This document shows positions 8,160 through 16,515 of a stretch of 38,727 nt of DNA, one piece after another. The notes below the pieces were generated by a model. That model saw only the letters and a list, made by a program, of their open reading frames with translations, had not been told where the DNA came from and ran no database searches. Position numbers and translations under genes: made by a program. Every line of letters starts with the position of its first letter. The first letter of the stretch is position 1. Where the stretch lies: assembly GCA_025927765.1 (NCBI GenBank), contig JAICKU010000033.1, forward strand, positions 1 through 38,727, in the 5' to 3' direction. This stretch comes from Burkholderiales bacterium. GTDB taxonomy: Bacteria > Pseudomonadota > Gammaproteobacteria > Burkholderiales > Casimicrobiaceae.

Positions 8160-8182
8160 CGAGCGTGTGTTAGGCTACAAAT

Positions 8183-8456
8183 CGCGAGCAGGAGAGCGCG
8201 CCTCCACTTCGGGAGGTCTGACTTCGGGGTCAGAGCGACAAGTCGGGACGACTTGTCGCTCTGACCCCGAAGTCAGACCCCGAAGTCCGAAGTGAAGGCG
8301 CCGCCGAAGGCGTAATCCCGAAACCGCTCAGGCAAAACGGACTGCACGCGAGGCAGCACACGATCTGGAGAGCGGTTGCGGGCTCGTGGCTCGCGATCCA
8401 CCGAAGGGGCACCGGCGGCTCGATCCGCCGCAATCTCTCAGGTAAAAGGACAGACG
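8183..8456 (+). ncRNA. Tandem glycine riboswitch (two aptamers) controlling gcvTHP-dadA
   Basis: Two glycine aptamers in series. Aptamer I (8183-8350) has the core strings GGAGAG, GCCGAAGGCG and CTCAGGCAAAACGGAC, closed by P1 pairing CGCG/CGCG and CAG/CTG. Aptamer II (8361-8456) has GGAGAG, CACCGAAGGGGCA and CTCTCAGGTAAAAGGAC, closed by TCTG/CAGA. The linker is about 10 bases. Glycine binding in this family usually switches on the glycine cleavage operon, and gcvT follows directly. Aptamer I is unusual: its P3 stem starts GCGCC/GGCGC, continues as CACTTCGG/CCGAAGTG (8205-8212 with 8287-8294), and then carries a long extra palindrome at 8216-8278. The core residues on both sides of this insert look intact. 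Aptamer II has a stem of normal size. Confidence 0.93.
8216..8278. repeat. Perfect 29-bp inverted repeat inserted in the riboswitch P3 stem
   Basis: Arms 8216-8244 and 8250-8278 are exact reverse complements around the 5-base spacer GGGAC (one further G-C pair can close, leaving GGA). The arms contain GACTTCGGGGTC and its complement, and a partial copy ACCCCGAAGTC follows on the right, next to the CCGAAGTG that closes the native stem. The element behaves like a REP/miniature inverted repeat placed at the tip of the stem, where a long hairpin is tolerated. Confidence 0.85.
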
Positions 8457-8489
8457 GGGCGATGCGAAGCGATTCGCGTCGCCCTTTTT
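8457..8489 (+). terminator. Riboswitch expression platform: intrinsic terminator
   Basis: GGGCGATGCGAA (8457-8468) pairs with TTCGCGTCGCCC (8473-8484) through 12 pairs including one G-T, around the loop GCGA, and TTTTT follows at 8485-8489. It begins immediately at the 3' edge of aptamer II, 20 bases before the gcvT start. This is the classic layout for transcriptional control: glycine binding would stabilise P1 of aptamer II and disfavour the terminator, whose 5' bases abut that helix. Confidence 0.8.
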
Positions 8490-8509
8490 GCATCTGCCCG
8501 GAGATTCGC

Positions 8510-9601
8510 GTGTCCAGGACGACGGTTCTCAACAGCGCCCACCGCGCACAAGGCGCGCGGATGGTCGACTTCGGCGGCTACGACATGCCGCTGCACTACG
8601 GCTCGCAGATCGACGAGCATCACGCGGTGCGCAACGACGCGGGGATGTTCGACGTGTCGCACATGCGCGTCGTCGACCTGCACGGCGAGCCGCGCCCGTT
8701 CCTCTCGCATGCGCTCGCGAACGACGTCGCGAAACTGACCGTACCCGGCAAGGCGCTCTATTCGTGCCTGCTGCGCGACGACGGCGGCGTGCTCGACGAT
8801 TTGATCGTCTACTTCCTGCGCGACGATTGCTTCCGCCTCGTCGTCAACGCTGCCACTGCCGACAAGGACATCGCGTGGCTGCACGCGCTCGCGGCGAAAC
8901 ACGCGCCGGGACTGCGCATCGCGCCGCGCGACGATCTTGCAATGATCGCCGTGCAGGGCCCGCATGCGCGCGAGAAGGTGTGGCGCGCGTTGCCGGGCAG
9001 CGAGACCGCCACGCGCGAGTTGAAGCCGTTCAGCGCCGCGTCGTTCACGACGCCCTTCGGCGAGGTGTTCGCGGCGCGCACCGGTTACACCGGTGAAGAC
9101 GGCTTCGAATTGATCGTGCCCGCACGCACGGTCGAAGCGGTCTGGAACGCGCTTCGCACCACGGGTGTGACGCCTGCCGGCCTCGGTGCGCGCGACACGC
9201 TGCGCCTCGAAGCGGGTCTCAACCTGTACGGTCAGGACATGGACGAAGCGGTGTCGCCGCTCGAATCGGGCCTTGCGTGGACCGTCGACACGAAGCGCGA
9301 GCGCGATTTCGTCGGCCGCGGCGCACTCGCGAAGCAACCGGTCGCGCGCCGGCTCGCGGGGCTCGTGCTGCAGGACGCCGGCGTGCTGCGCGCGCATCAG
9401 GTCGTTCATACGTCACACGGCGCCGGCGAGATCACGAGCGGCACGTTCTCGCCGACGATGAAGAAGTCGATCGCGCTCGCTCGGCTGCCGAAGGGCGTCG
9501 CCGACGGCGAGATCGTGCACGTCGACGTCCGCGGCAAGTCACTGGCCGCGCGCGTCGTGAAGCCGCCGTTCGTGCGGCAGGGCCGCATTCTCGTCGAGTG
9601 A
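8510..9601 (+). CDS. gcvT: Aminomethyltransferase, T-protein of the glycine cleavage system
   Basis: Transfers the aminomethyl carbon from lipoyl-GcvH to tetrahydrofolate, releasing ammonia. 363 residues, the normal length. N-terminal [19 protein letters not shown] and [12 protein letters not shown] are typical of the folate-binding domain; the central [10 protein letters not shown] and the C-terminal [19 protein letters not shown], with its conserved aspartates and arginine, are family hallmarks; [20 protein letters not shown] closes the barrel domain. The GTG at 8510 is chosen: a CGGAGA ribosome site lies just upstream and the next codons, [20 protein letters not shown], match the usual N-terminus. 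It is the first gene after the riboswitch, with gcvH 34 bases downstream. Confidence 0.96.
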
Positions 9602-9635: not shown

Positions 9636-10019
9636 ATGAACGTCCCGACCGGACTCAAGTACGCCGACACGCACGAATGGCTGAAGCGCGAAGACGACGG
9701 CACGGTGACGATCGGCATCACCGATCATGCGCAGAACGCGCTCGGCGATCTCGTCTACGTCGAACTGCCTGCCGTCGGCCGCAAGCTCGCGAAAGGCGAA
9801 GCCTGCGCGGTCGTCGAGTCGGTCAAGGCGGCGAGCGACGTCTATGCACCCATCGCCGGCGAAGTCGTTGCCGTCAACGACAAGCTGTCGGGCTCACCCG
9901 AAGCAGTGAACGAGGACGCGTACGCCGCGTGGCTGTTCCGCCTGCGCCCCGACGACGCGGACGCGCTCGCGGGTTTCATGGATGCCGCCGCGTACTCGCG
10001 ATTCGCTGCGGAGCCGTGA
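9636..10019 (+). CDS. gcvH: Glycine cleavage system H protein (lipoyl carrier)
   Basis: Small carrier whose lipoyl arm shuttles the aminomethyl group between GcvP, GcvT and lipoamide dehydrogenase. 127 residues. The lipoylated lysine is K64 in [14 protein letters not shown], and [17 protein letters not shown] is the conserved strand before it. An excellent ribosome site, GAGGAGGAAA, precedes the ATG. The lipoyl group would be supplied by LipB and LipA encoded at 23.6-25.2 kb in the same window. No lipoamide dehydrogenase (L protein) gene is seen here; it is commonly shared with other complexes and encoded elsewhere. Confidence 0.97.
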
Positions 10020-10024
10020 ACCGC

Positions 10025-12958
10025 ATGAAACGTCCTCACGCCAGCCCTCTCCCCGCGCGCGGGGAGAGGGAGCAGGCTTCGCTGCGCGATCTCGAAGCGC
10101 ACGACGAATTCCTGGCGCGCCACATCGGCACATCGCCCGCGCCCCAGGAGGCGATGCTGCGCGACCTGGGCTTCGCGTCGAGCGACGCGCTGATCGACGC
10201 CGTGGTCCCGGCCGCAATCCGGCTCGCCACGCCGCTCGCACTGCCTCCGCCCGTCAGCGAGGCCGGAGCGATCGACCGCCTGCGCGCGATCGCCTCGCGC
10301 AATCGCATGCTGAAGTCGTTCATCGGCCAGGGCTATTACGGCACGTTCATGCCGGGCGTGATTCGGCGCAACGTGTTCGAGAATCCCGCGTGGTACACGG
10401 CGTACACGCCGTACCAGCCGGAGATCTCGCAGGGCCGTCTCGAAGCGCTCGTCAACTTCCAGACGATGGTCACGGATTTGACCGGCATGGAGATCGCCAA
10501 CGCGTCGATGCTCGACGAGGCCACCGCCGCCGCCGAGGCGATGACGCTTTGCCAGCGTGCGAAGCCCGCGAAGTCGCGCACGTTCTACGTCGCCGACGAC
10601 GTTTTCGCGCAGACGATCGACGTCGTGCGAACGCGCGCGGCGGCGCTCGGCATCGACGTCGTCGTCGGGCCCGCGCCCGAGGCCGCCAACGCCGATGCGT
10701 TCGGCGTGCTGCTGCAATACCCGAGTGCGGATGGCGGCGTGCGCGACGACCGTGCGCTCGTCGAAGCGGTGCATGAACGCGGTGCGCTCGTCGTCGTCGC
10801 CACCGACCTGCTCGCGTTGACGCTGCTCGCCGCCCCCGGCGAATGGGGCGCCGACGTCGTCGTCGGCTCGTCGCAGCGGTTCGGCGTGCCAATGGGCTTC
10901 GGCGGGCCGCACGCGGCGTTCATGGCGACGCGCGACGCGATGAAGCGCGCGCTGCCCGGACGCCTCGTCGGCGCCACCGTCGACGCCGAAGGCCGGCGTG
11001 CGTATCGCCTCGCGCTGCAGACGCGCGAGCAGCACATTCGCCGCGAGAAGGCGACGTCGAACATCTGCACCGCGCAGGTGCTGCTCGCGGTGATCGCGAG
11101 CATGTACGCGGTCTATCACGGCGCCGAGGGCCTGACCACCATCGCCCGGCGCGTGCATCGGCTGACGTCGATCCTGCGCGACGGACTCGTGCGCCTCGGC
11201 TTCGCCGCGCCGCCGCGACCGCACTTCGACACGCTGACGATCGTCACCGGCGAACGCACGCAGGCGATCGCCGCGCGCGCGGTCGCAGCGGGCTGCAACC
11301 TGCGGCTCGGCGATGCGCATTCGCTCGGCGTGTCGCTCGACGAAACCACCACGCGTGACGACGTCGCGTTGCTGTGGCGCGTGTTCGCCGGTGGCGACGT
11401 ACCCTTTGACGTCGACGCGCTCGACGCCGCGGTCGACGACGGTTACACGGCGCCGCTCGCGCGCACGTCGCCGTTCCTCACGCATCCGGTGTTTCGAGCG
11501 CATCGTTCGGAGACGCAGATGCTGCGCTACCTGCGCCATCTCGCCGACAAGGATCTCGCGCTCGACCGCACGATGATCCCGCTCGGGTCGTGCACGATGA
11601 AACTGAACGCGACGTCCGAGATGCTGCCGCTCACGTGGCGCGAATTCTCGTCGCTGCACCCGTTCGCGCCGCTCGATCAGGCGCAGGGTTACGTCGAGCT
11701 CGTGGCCGATCTCGAGCGGATGTTGTGCGCGTGCACCGGCTACGACGCCGTGTCGCTGCAGCCGAACGCCGGCTCGCAGGGTGAGTACGCGGGCCTTTTG
11801 ATGATTCGCGCGTACCACGAAAGCCGCGGCGAGGGTCAGCGCGACGTGTGCCTGATTCCCGCGTCGGCGCACGGCACCAATCCGGCATCGGCGCAACTCG
11901 CGGGCATGAAGGTCGTCGTGGTCGCGTGCGACCGCGCCGGCAACGTCGATCTCGCCGACCTCGAGGCGAAGGCGAAGCAGCATCACGACCGCCTCGCGGC
12001 GATCATGGTCACGTATCCGTCGACGCACGGCGTGTTCGAGCCGGGCATCGTGCACGTGTGCGACATCGTGCACGCGCACGGCGGCCAGGTGTACGTCGAC
12101 GGCGCCAACCTGAATGCGCTGGTCGGGCTTGCGGCGCCGGGCGAGTTCGGCGCCGACGTGTCGCACTTGAATCTGCACAAGACGTTCTGCATTCCGCACG
12201 GCGGCGGCGGTCCTGGGATAGGTCCTGTCGCATGCAGGGCGCACCTCGCGCCGTTCCTGCCCGGGCATCGGCAATTCGGCGATGCCACGCGCGCCGTCAG
12301 CGCCGCGCCCTACGGCTCGGCGTCGATCCTGCCGATCTCGTGGATGTACATCACGATGATGGGCGCGAGCGGACTGCGCGCGGCCACCGAGAGCGCGATC
12401 CTCGCCGCCAATTACGTCGCGAAGAAGCTCGGCACGCACTACCCCGTGCTCTACACGGGCCCCGACGGGCTCGTCGCGCACGAATGCATCCTCGACCTGC
12501 GTCCGCTCGCCGCCCTCGCGGGTATCGAGGTGGAGGACGTCGCGAAGCGGCTCATTGATTACGGCTTCCATGCACCGACGATGAGTTTTCCCGTCGCGGG
12601 CACGCTGATGGTCGAGCCGACCGAAAGCGAATCGAAGGGCGAGCTCGACCGCTTCGTGAACGCGATGATCGCGATCCGCGACGAAGTGCGCGACATCGAG
12701 CGCGGCACGTTCGACCGCGACGACAATCCGCTGAAGCACGCGCCGCACACGGCGGCGGCGGTGACGGCCGACGACTGGGCGCACGCGTACACGCGCCGGC
12801 AGGCGGCGTATCCGGTGCCGTCGCTCGCGGAGAACAAGTACTGGTGCCCGGTCGCGCGCGTCGACAACGTGTACGGCGATCGCAACCTGTTCTGCAGCTG
12901 CCTGCCCGTCGACGACGCGGCCGAGGCGCCCGTTCCACTCGCTGCGGCGCTCGCCTGA
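10025..12958 (+). CDS. gcvP: Glycine dehydrogenase (decarboxylating), P-protein
   Basis: Pyridoxal-phosphate enzyme that decarboxylates glycine and loads the aminomethyl group onto GcvH. 977 residues, the fused single-chain form. The family pattern is clear: [10 protein letters not shown] near the N-terminus, [54 protein letters not shown], and the PLP lysine K719 in [18 protein letters not shown]. The N-terminus is odd: codons 8-15 (PLPARGER) are encoded by a perfect 26-bp palindrome. The ATG at 10025 lies 5 bases after the gcvH stop; a GTG at 10016 in the same frame overlaps that stop. No start codon lies between the palindrome and the conserved [10 protein letters not shown], so the palindrome must be translated. 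dadA starts directly at the stop codon. Confidence 0.96.
10045..10070. repeat. Perfect 26-bp REP-like palindrome inside the gcvP N-terminal codons
   Basis: Thirteen bases, CCCTCTCCCCGCG, are followed directly by their exact reverse complement. This matches the common REP-type sequence of GC-rich proteobacteria that, when read through, gives the peptide PLPARGER. It starts 20 bases after the A of the gcvP ATG, in frame. As RNA it could form a very stable hairpin just behind the initiation site. Confidence 0.88.
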
Positions 12959-15184: not shown

Positions 15185-15784
15185 ATGCCATTGCGCCGAT
15201 GCGTCGGACGGGCGGTTCGCGCAGCGCTTGCCGCGTGCGTCATCGCGAGCGTCGCGGTGCGTGCGCAGGCGGCCGACATCGTGTGGCACGTAAGCCGCGC
15301 CGACGATGCGCTCGCGATCGAGGCGAGCGCGCGTCTTCGCGCCGATCTTCCGGGTGCGTGGCACGTGCTGACCGACTACGATCGCTACGCGCAATTCATT
15401 CCCGGCCTGGACGCGAGCCACGTGATCGTGCGGCGCGGCGCCGACGTGGTCGTCCGCCAGAGCGTCGAGGTGACGCTGTGGCTGTTTCGCGCGCCGGTCG
15501 ACGTCACCTACGAGATCACCGAAGAGGCGCCGTCCCGCATCGTGTCCCGCACGGTCGGCGGCTGCGCGTGCACGCTCGACAGCACGTACACGCTTCGCCG
15601 TGACGGTGGGGACGTGCGCCTCGATTACCGCGGGCGCCTCGTCACCGGTTCGGGCGTCGCGTCGTTGTTCGAGAACGCCGCCGGCGAGCGGACGGCGATG
15701 CGTCAGTTCCGTGCGCTCGCCGACGAGATCGAGGCGCGCGCCCGGCACGAAACGTCGGTCGTGCCGTGGCACGTCGCCAAATGA
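15185..15784 (+). CDS. Exported START/SRPBCC-fold protein (polyketide-cyclase/Coq10-like)
   Basis: 199 residues. A signal peptide (RRCVGRAVRAALAACVIASVAV..AQAA) ends near residue 30. The mature part looks like the SRPBCC/START fold: ADLPGAWHVLTDYDRYAQFIPGLDASHVI is the typical first helix-strand with the Y-D-x-Y-xxF-P pattern of Coq10-like cyclase/lipid-carrier proteins, followed by VDVTYEITEEAPSRIVSRTV strands and a long C-terminal helix, ENAAGERTAMRQFRALADEI. Such folds bind hydrophobic ligands. Being exported is unusual for Coq10-like members. ATG 15185 is preferred; a GTG at 15176 overlaps the stop of the barrel gene. Its own stop overlaps the start of the YceI-like gene (ATGA), so the two are translationally coupled. 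Confidence 0.7.
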   Translation: MPLRRCVGRAVRAALAACVIASVAVRAQAADIVWHVSRADDALAIEASARLRADLPGAWHVLTDYDRYAQFIPGLDASHVIVRRGADVVVRQSVEVTLWLFRAPVDVTYEITEEAPSRIVSRTVGGCACTLDSTYTLRRDGGDVRLDYRGRLVTGSGVASLFENAAGERTAMRQFRALADEIEARARHETSVVPWHVAK

Positions 15785-16515
15785 ACGGCGCGTCCAGGCA
15801 TCGACGCACGCGCGTCTTTCTCGCGATGGCGCTCGTCGCGGCGCTCGCGTCCGCCTGCGCACCGACGCTTCCGTCCCCGGAAGGCGTCGCACCGCAGCAG
15901 CGCATCGAAGCCGCGCGTCCGCCGGGATTTCCCGAGGGCGATTACCGCGCGGCGATCGCACGCGGCGAACTCGTCTACGCGATCGAGCCCGCGCGTTCGC
16001 TCGTCGTGCTGGAAGTGCATCGTGCCGGCCGGCTCGCGCGCCTCGGCCACGATCACGTCGTCGCGAGTCACGACGTGCAGGGCTTCGTTGCGCCGGCCTT
16101 GCGACGCGCGGACCTCTTCGTGCGGCTCGACCGGCTCGTCGTCGACGAGGAGGACCTGCGCCTCGAGGCCGGATTCGGCGCGCGTCCGCCCGAGGCGGCG
16201 GTGACCGGGACGCGCGACAACATGCTGGGACCGGTGCTGCACGCCGAGGCCAATCCGTTCGCAACGATCCATGTCGCCGCGGTGAACGGCGGCGGCGATC
16301 TTGACGTGGCGATCACGCTCAATGGCGTCACGCACGCATCGCGCGTTCGTGCGACGATCGATCGGCAGGGCGACGAGCTCGTCGCGTCGGGGGGCCTTGC
16401 GATCGACCAGACGGACTTCGGTATCACGCCGCTGTCGATCCTCGGCGGGGCCATTCAAGTGCAGGATCGCGTCGACGTGCGCTTCACGATCCGCGCACGC
16501 GAAGTTGCCGGCTGA
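15781..16515 (+). CDS. YceI-like lipoprotein
   Basis: 244 residues. The N-terminus is a lipoprotein signal: RRTR, hydrophobic run, then ALASAC with a lipobox cysteine near residue 26, so the protein should be anchored to a membrane facing the periplasm. Residues about 55-240 look like the YceI domain, a lipocalin-like barrel that binds long isoprenoid chains: VYAIEPARSLVVLEVHRAGRLARLGHDH at the start, ATIHVAAVNGGG and ITLNGVTHASRVRATID in the middle and FGITPLSILGGAIQVQDRVDVRF at the end. The start is the ATG at 15781 overlapping the previous stop. With a START-fold protein and a probable barrel upstream, a role in moving or sensing a lipid or quinone-like molecule in the envelope is a reasonable inference. 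Confidence 0.72.
   Translation: MNGASRHRRTRVFLAMALVAALASACAPTLPSPEGVAPQQRIEAARPPGFPEGDYRAAIARGELVYAIEPARSLVVLEVHRAGRLARLGHDHVVASHDVQGFVAPALRRADLFVRLDRLVVDEEDLRLEAGFGARPPEAAVTGTRDNMLGPVLHAEANPFATIHVAAVNGGGDLDVAITLNGVTHASRVRATIDRQGDELVASGGLAIDQTDFGITPLSILGGAIQVQDRVDVRFTIRAREVAG

What the first reader, a model, noticed from the sequence alone, without database searches (positions are those of the whole stretch)
8183..8350. Glycine riboswitch aptamer I carries a 63-nt palindromic insert in its P3 stem
Seen: aptamer I core strings are intact, its P3 stem closes with GCGCC/GGCGC and CACTTCGG/CCGAAGTG, and between them lies a perfect 29-bp inverted repeat (8216-8278) plus a short partial copy (ACCCCGAAGTC). 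Known: the outer P3 region of glycine aptamers is variable, while the core and the contacts between aptamers lie elsewhere. Inference: a mobile palindrome landed at the one site where a working riboswitch can absorb it. It adds a stem of nearly 40 pairs to one aptamer, which might change folding speed, RNase access or how the two aptamers couple.
Basis: partly seen in the sequence, partly recalled or inferred. Interest (0 to 1): 0.72.

Follow-up and report, generated by a model that had tools for sequence, protein, structure and literature searches.

The report
Mobile palindrome inside a glycine riboswitch
A small mobile-type DNA palindrome has landed in an expendable hairpin of an RNA switch that senses glycine, and the rest of the switch looks undamaged, which suggests where some odd extra stems in riboswitches come from.

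Summary
The window holds a tandem glycine riboswitch (RF00504, two hits over gathering score) ahead of gcvT-gcvH-gcvP. In aptamer I a perfect 31-bp inverted repeat with a 3-nt loop sits in the first hairpin, which is P2, not P3. The insert is a REPIN: its motif TCTGACCCCG occurs 135 times in this genome (reversed control 1), neighbouring motifs stand head-to-head 40 times and tail-to-tail never, and a RAYT-type transposase gene is flanked by the same REPs. The CACTTCGG/CCGAAGTG pair taken as native belongs to the element. In 19 of 21 same-genus relatives the riboswitch was found; all 19 have a short P2 (21-37 nt, against 107) without these motifs. Predicted pairing outside the insert is the same with and without it. 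Other dispersed repeats sit in aptamer II P3b of related bacteria (three genomes of one family, one genome of another), so variable stems of this riboswitch may be colonised repeatedly. Likeliest reading: a tolerated passenger. Effects on RNase III cleavage or folding kinetics are open. New variant of a known kind.

The parts
8179..8354 (+). Glycine riboswitch aptamer I (with insert in P2)
   Evidence: RF00504 47.1 bits
8198..8202 (+). P2 stem, 5' side, native (GCGCC)
   Evidence: pairs with 8297-8301; same stem position in the same-genus alignment
8203..8296 (+). Interval that holds the insert (about 80 nt of it new; exact ends not resolvable)
   Evidence: P2 region 107 nt (8197-8303, counted) against 21-37 nt, mean 26.6, in 19 relatives
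8205..8219 (+). left outer tail of the element (contains CACTTCGG)
   Evidence: further REP copies or fragments beside REPIN cores in 35 of 76 other flanks, control 3 of 76
8220..8245 (+). REP unit, left (GACTTCGGGGTCAGAGCGACAAGTCG)
   Evidence: its 24-nt core found in 6 of 73 other fetched loci
8249..8274 (-). REP unit, right, inverted
   Evidence: perfect complement of the left unit
8275..8294 (+). right outer tail (second REP fragment AGACCCCGAAG and CCGAAGTG)
8297..8301 (+). P2 stem, 3' side, native (GGCGC)
8355..8463 (+). Glycine riboswitch aptamer II, no insert
   Evidence: RF00504 48.7 bits
8456..8485 (+). Intrinsic-terminator-like hairpin followed by a T run; overlaps the 3' end of aptamer II (expression platform, inferred)
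   Evidence: 13 pairs, loop 4; 3 terminator-like sites in the region, shuffles 0.5
8462..9601 (+). gcvT open frame (start more likely the GTG at 8510, after GGAG at 8500; inferred)
   Evidence: NCBIfam gcvT 364.8 bits over cut-off, matching from residue 20
9636..10019 (+). gcvH
   Evidence: NCBIfam 152.6 bits over cut-off
9677..12958 (+). gcvP open frame (its 5' part overlaps gcvH; the domain starts at residue 148)
   Evidence: NCBIfam gcvP 1430 bits

Best explanation
[quoted passage not shown] Shown by sequence: the element is multicopy, its motifs are often paired head-to-head, a RAYT-type gene is bracketed by the same REPs, the orthologous stems of 19 same-genus relatives lack it, and both aptamer cores are intact. 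Inferred: as RNA the insert is a self-contained hairpin on top of P2 that leaves P1, P3, the P3a/P3b pocket and the terminator alone, so the switch still turns gcvT on with glycine. The insert is a tolerated passenger, kept because P2 is a distal, length-variable stem outside the pocket and the inter-aptamer contacts.
For: Copy number: TCTGACCCCG 64+71 in G000, reversed control 0+1; 18-mer TCTGACCCCGAAGTCAGA up to 2 mismatches 19+26, control 0. Lineage-specific expansion: CTCTGACCCCGAAGT 80 copies in G000, 5 in G021, 2 in G019, 1 in G016, 0 in the other 18 of 22 same-genus genomes. REPIN geometry: among neighbouring motifs within 110 bp in the 74 sources read (134 nine-base motifs), -+ 40, +- 0, -- 10, ++ 6. 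Identical 24-nt arm in 6 of 73 other loci. RAYT-type gene at L178:15458-16156 between REP(-) at 15371 and REP(+) at 16179; Pfam Y1_Tnp 45.7 bits (cut-off 23), NCBIfam REP_Tyr_transpos its only hit. P2 21-37 nt in 19 of 19 same-genus loci read, 107 in the window. The end of the upstream gene is shared with G005 and G012, so the left flank belongs to this locus. RNAfold: 0 of 75, 232, 277 and 188 compared positions change partner with and without 8207-8292 in four lengths of leader; 8 positions at the junction were not compared. Riboswitches tolerate 'variable insertions' that form stem-loops (PMC2258182, passage); the gonococcal gcvT riboswitch responds to glycine with a 73-nt P3 loop in aptamer 2 (PMC13104608, section 7 part 1).
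Against: No expression or binding data. The relatives are other species (57-77% identity over the aligned leader); no strain-level empty site was found, so 'insertion' is inferred by parsimony. 54 of the 134 motifs read are not part of a head-to-head pair. Both RAYT candidates score under NCBIfam's curated cut-off (67.5 and 72.1 against 80). The family lacks the GTAG tag of classical REPs (3 of 133 units contain GTAG), and the single unit shows only weak self-complementarity (37 of 133, against 23.5 when halves are dealt anew). In some searches the genome-wide search saw aptamer I only as a fragment (31.7 bits, just below the cut-off of 32). The sigma-70 scan found no promoter. In the predicted fold of the whole leader, P1 of aptamer I is replaced by a pairing with aptamer II, with and without the insert, so RNAfold is no test of the ligand-bound state.
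Confidence: 0.74

Rival explanations
1. The REPIN is not neutral: the perfect 31-bp RNA duplex makes the leader an RNase III substrate, or delays cotranscriptional folding and stalls polymerase, so that it sets the level or timing of gcv expression (a co-opted insert).
For: 31 perfect pairs with a 3-nt loop near the 5' end of the leader; about 80 extra nt to transcribe before the core; a repeat of another family is co-transcribed with riboswitches (BOX between two T-boxes, PMC3049150, passages).
Against: No predicted pair outside the insert changes at the positions compared; P2 lies upstream of all of P3 and of the terminator, so only the P1 5' strand waits for it (inference); one species only, so no sign of selection.
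Confidence: 0.18
2. The insertion has broken aptamer I, and the riboswitch works through aptamer II alone or is decaying.
For: The whole-genome search scores aptamer I just below cut-off, as a fragment.
Against: The window search with RF00504 gives 47.1 bits, close to aptamer II, and the core letters match those of relatives; the P2 base pairs have predicted probability 0.994-1.0.
Confidence: 0.06
3. Assembly artefact: the contig was joined wrongly across a repeat.
For: The genome is in 148 contigs and a number of REPs sit near contig ends.
Against: Both sides of the insert are halves of one aptamer: P2 and core partners match, aptamer II and gcvT follow, and the upstream gene end is the one found at this locus in relatives.
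Confidence: 0.02

Closest known systems
REPINs and RAYTs (PMC3116915, 2011; abstract and passages seen)
   Same: Multicopy short sequence, inverted doublets that form a hairpin, RAYT-type gene flanked by the same sequence.
   Different: No GTAG tag; the unit is built on GGGGTCAGAG with variable ACTT- or AAAT-type ends; this copy lies inside a riboswitch stem.
'Variable insertions' of riboswitches (PMC2258182, 2007; passages seen)
   Same: Stem-loop added at a tolerated site of an aptamer.
   Different: Here the source of the stem-loop is identified as a mobile-type repeat.
BOX element between two T-box riboswitches of the pneumococcal trp leader (PMC3049150; passages seen)
   Same: Dispersed repeat in a riboswitch leader, thought to fold independently.
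   Different: BOX lies between two riboswitches, not inside an aptamer helix.
Tandem glycine riboswitch of Neisseria gonorrhoeae gcvT with a 73-nt P3 loop (PMC13104608; passages and section 7 part 1 seen)
   Same: Expanded distal stem in a glycine aptamer of a leader that responds to glycine.
   Different: P3 loop of aptamer 2; in the parts I saw the authors do not call the loop a repeat, and I did not test it.
Palindromes in other structured RNAs: Rickettsia palindromic elements, STRR repeats in cyanobacterial RNase P RNA (recalled, confirmed by no call)
   Same: Repeat tolerated in a variable stem of a functional RNA.
   Different: Other RNA, other repeat families.

Membership tests
Glycine riboswitch (RF00504) | covariance-model score over gathering threshold, both aptamers | tested here: met
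   47.1 and 48.7 against 32 bits
Glycine riboswitch (RF00504) | upstream of a glycine-metabolism gene | tested here: met
   gcvT, gcvH, gcvP
Glycine riboswitch (RF00504) | binds glycine and switches expression | not testable with these tools
   needs probing or a reporter
REPIN | short sequence over-represented in the genome | tested here: met
   135 against 1 reversed control
REPIN | two units as an inverted doublet forming a hairpin | tested here: met
   -+ 40, +- 0, -- 10, ++ 6 among neighbouring motifs, 54 of 134 motifs unpaired; this copy has 31-nt perfect arms
REPIN | linked RAYT gene flanked by the same REP | tested here: met
   L178:15458-16156 between REPs; a second Y1_Tnp gene on the same contig has GCGGGTCAGAGATG-type variants beside it; Pfam Y1_Tnp over cut-off for both, NCBIfam REP_Tyr_transpos below its cut-off for both
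REPIN | mostly extragenic | not tested
   no gene calling was done around the sites
classical GTAG-tagged REP | GTAG tetranucleotide 5' of the palindrome | tested here: not met
   GTAG anywhere in the 40-nt unit in 3 of 133 units
REPIN | mobilised by the RAYT | not testable with these tools
   needs an excision or cleavage assay

The most novel reading that the evidence does not exclude
The distal stems of the tandem glycine riboswitch are recurrent landing sites for unrelated dispersed palindromes, so mobile repeats are a general source of the 'variable insertions' of riboswitches. Seen here: a GGGGTCAGA REPIN in P2 of aptamer I (family f1), a TCATTCCCGC palindrome in P3b of aptamer II in three genomes of family f25, and a third repeat in P3b of aptamer II in G040 (family f5). 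A bolder form is that such elements insert preferentially into loops of existing hairpins, of which a riboswitch stem is one; the flank test in this genome is suggestive only.
Probability: 0.4. Interest if true: 0.68.

Novelty: new variant of a known kind. Interest (0 to 1): 0.52.

Why it matters
It gives a natural with/without pair for a question usually asked with engineered RNAs: what a riboswitch does with a long stem on a peripheral helix. It also ties the 'variable insertions' of riboswitches, in this case, to a definite source, a mobile REP-type repeat. That can be tested widely by asking in each genome whether an aptamer's extra stem is a multicopy sequence.

Tried and rejected
Native stem: rejected, 19 of 19 same-genus loci read have a short P2 without the motif; two further same-genus relatives, G009 and G010, gave no riboswitch hit.

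Other long P2 stems as further repeat insertions: G052 has a 117-nt P2 (string), but its unit TTGCATAGCCAAAACCGCTATG (up to 3 mismatches) occurs only at this locus, 2 places, so it is a local tandem repeat. An order-wide pattern search for P2 of roughly 45-105 nt matched 10 of 399 genomes: G000, six of genus g19 whose printed stems do not contain the REP motif, and three (G295, G124, G354) that by eye are not aptamer-I P2 stems. The copy number of the g19 stems was not tested.

REPs in other structured RNAs of this genome: Rfam at gathering threshold on 73 other REP loci gave one match, a tRNA-Leu next to and not containing REPs.

Preference for hairpin loops: outer flanks pair more than when dealt anew (10 of 42 sites with at least 4 further pairs, shuffle mean 0.79, largest 5; mean duplex energy of 40 sites -11.8 against -9.96, sd 0.56, 0 of 300 shuffles as low). 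Several top sites (L174, L172, L158, L125) pair through REP tails despite masking, and some of the 42 sites overlap, so I do not claim it. Target-site duplication: none visible by eye.

Literature: ten searches ran on REPIN/RAYT, riboswitch-with-repeat, glycine-riboswitch, one DNA string and Rickettsia palindromes. No listing or passage that I saw describes a REP inside an aptamer helix. Several searches returned far more papers than were listed (20 of 965, 10 of 154, 10 of 54, 8 of 35,242), most listed papers were not opened, and most subscription papers are not held, so this is no proof of absence. Papers of which I saw passages: PMC3110155 (and section 14), PMC13104608 (and section 7 part 1), PMC2258182, PMC3116915, PMC8266576, PMC3049150, PMC7812874, PMC3733652, PMC6944388, PMC11751092, PMC3764141. 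In PMC5666159, PMC12060979, PMC4495719 and PMC6006769 my terms matched nothing. The rest: listing and start of abstract only.

Full report
What is there. The window carries a tandem glycine riboswitch (RF00504, 8179-8354 and 8355-8463) followed by a terminator-like hairpin (8456-8485) and gcvT, gcvH and gcvP. In aptamer I the first hairpin after GGAGAG holds a perfect inverted repeat, arms 8215-8245 and 8249-8279. A published description puts the binding pocket in P3/P3a and the inter-aptamer contacts in P3 and P1 (PMC13104608). The hairpin between GGAGAG and CGCCGAAGG is therefore P2; this naming is my reading of the 5'-to-3' order together with the Rfam alignment.

It is a mobile-type repeat. 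The motif TCTGACCCCG occurs 64+71 times in the 4.0-Mb genome, against 0+1 for the reversed pattern; the 18-mer with up to 2 mismatches occurs 19+26 times, control 0. I read 74 stretches (73 loci chosen from the listed hits, and the window); the hit list was capped at 100 places, so not every copy was read. They hold 134 nine-base motifs. Neighbouring motifs within 110 bp are -+ 40 times, +- never, -- 10 and ++ 6 times; 54 motifs are not in a head-to-head pair. The head-to-head doublet is what defines REPINs (PMC3116915). The 24-nt arm of this copy recurs exactly in 6 of the 73 other loci. Two Y1-transposase genes lie on contig C111; the one at L178:15458-16156 is bracketed by the same REPs in the same -/+ orientation. 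Pfam Y1_Tnp passes its cut-off for both; NCBIfam's REP-associated transposase model is the best NCBIfam hit for both but below its cut-off (67.5 and 72.1 against 80). The family lacks the GTAG tag (3 of 133 units), so it is not a classical GTAG REP.

It is absent from relatives. Of 21 same-genus relatives searched, 19 had a riboswitch hit (G009 and G010 had none). All 19 were read: P2 is 21-37 nt, mean 26.6, and none contains CTTCGG or CCGAAG. In the window the same stretch, 8197-8303, is 107 nt (counted). The 15-mer CTCTGACCCCGAAGT occurs 80 times in this genome, 5 times in G021, 2 in G019, 1 in G016 and not in the other 18 of 22. The element therefore expanded in this lineage, and G021 carries a few copies with a clean riboswitch. 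The relatives are different species (57-77% identity over the aligned leader), so the empty site is inferred and not seen at strain level.

The outer helix belongs to the element. Further REP copies or fragments lie within 30 nt outside the REPIN core in 35 of 76 flanks of other sites, against 3 of 76 at 105-135 nt; some of these are neighbouring full units rather than tails. The REP behind the RAYT-type gene has the same kind of tail. CACTTCGG/CCGAAGTG is thus not native P2, and the insert is about 80 nt.

What it does to the RNA. RNAfold gives the same partner to every compared position outside the insert with and without 8207-8292, in four lengths of leader (0 of 75, 232, 277 and 188 positions differ; 8 positions at the junction were left out). 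The base of P2 has pair probabilities of 0.994-1.0. RNAfold does not show P1 of aptamer I in the whole leader in either case, so this is evidence that the insert is self-contained, not that the ligand-bound fold forms. Riboswitches are known to tolerate stem-loop 'variable insertions' (PMC2258182), and the gonococcal gcvT riboswitch responds to glycine with a 73-nt P3 loop in aptamer 2 (PMC13104608). The passenger reading follows; RNase III cleavage and kinetics remain open.

Is it a single case? A search of 399 genomes of the order for P3b of about 46-106 nt in aptamer II matched 6. Three of them, G149, G312 and G060 of family f25, carry a palindrome built on TCATTCCCGC. Its form ATTCCCGCGCAGGCGGGAATCCAG has 27, 9 and 34 matches in these genomes with up to 2 mismatches, control 0; with at most 1 mismatch the numbers are 21, 4 and 12, and in G312 the only exact copy is the riboswitch itself. 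Four other genomes of f25 were in that search (G106, G187, G222, G283: 16, 27, 0 and 2 matches). In G060 the riboswitch copy is a variant with an AAAA spacer that one search does not match; the looser palindrome stands at 5 places in G060, four of them with another spacer. The other three genomes (G387, G225, G422) have longer P3b stems that were not tested for copies. G040 (family f5) has a 176-nt P3b in aptamer II, of which 58-101 nt match three other places in G040 and three in G060 at 76-86% identity. Its resemblance to the betaproteobacterial repeat BRE (PMC3110155, section 14) was not tested, since that section gives no sequence. For f25 and G040 no empty-site comparison was made, so insertion there rests on length and copy number. 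In one order, then, three repeat families occupy distal stems of the same riboswitch in three bacterial families. Because an insertion in the core would hide an aptamer from detection, this does not show that stems are preferred targets; survivorship explains it equally well.

Within the stretches of this genome that were scanned, the riboswitch is the only Rfam-detectable RNA that contains the REP: of 73 other REP loci, one holds a tRNA-Leu beside a REP cluster and none holds an RNA with a REP inside, at gathering threshold. An RNA interrupted by an insert may escape the filters, as aptamer I itself did in the genome-wide search (31.7 bits).

Verdict. Observation confirmed; mobile-insert interpretation supported, with the helix renamed P2, the element enlarged and identified as a REPIN with a RAYT-type gene in the same genome, and the claim of a single permissive site withdrawn.

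Noticed in passing
G149 (L258), G312 (L259), G060 (L114), aptamer II P3b: A dispersed TCATTCCCGC palindrome sits in P3b of aptamer II of the gcvT riboswitch in three genomes of one family.
   Followed up: partly
G040 (L096, L215), aptamer II P3b, 176 nt: Insert of which 58-101 nt recur at three more places in this genome and three in a genome of another family; possibly the BRE repeat, not tested.
   Followed up: partly
G052 (L218), aptamer I P2, 117 nt: P2 grown by a local tandem repeat of TTGCATAGCCAAAACCGCTATG that was found nowhere else in that genome.
   Followed up: yes
genus g19 (L226-L231): Long P2 stems in aptamer I, in several of them with GTGCAG-type micro-repeats.
   Followed up: no
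L142:275-532 (G000:C28): Cluster of six REP motifs directly beside the 3' end of a tRNA-Leu gene.
   Followed up: no
G000 contigs C1, C48, C65, C67, C79, C86, C88, C100, C107: REP copies lie within about 150 bases of these contig ends, so the assembly may break at them.
   Followed up: no
8181-8189 and 8389-8397: The P1 5' strand of aptamer I is complementary to a stretch in the first hairpin of aptamer II, and RNAfold pairs them in the whole leader with and without the insert; a possible ligand-free alternative pairing.
   Followed up: no
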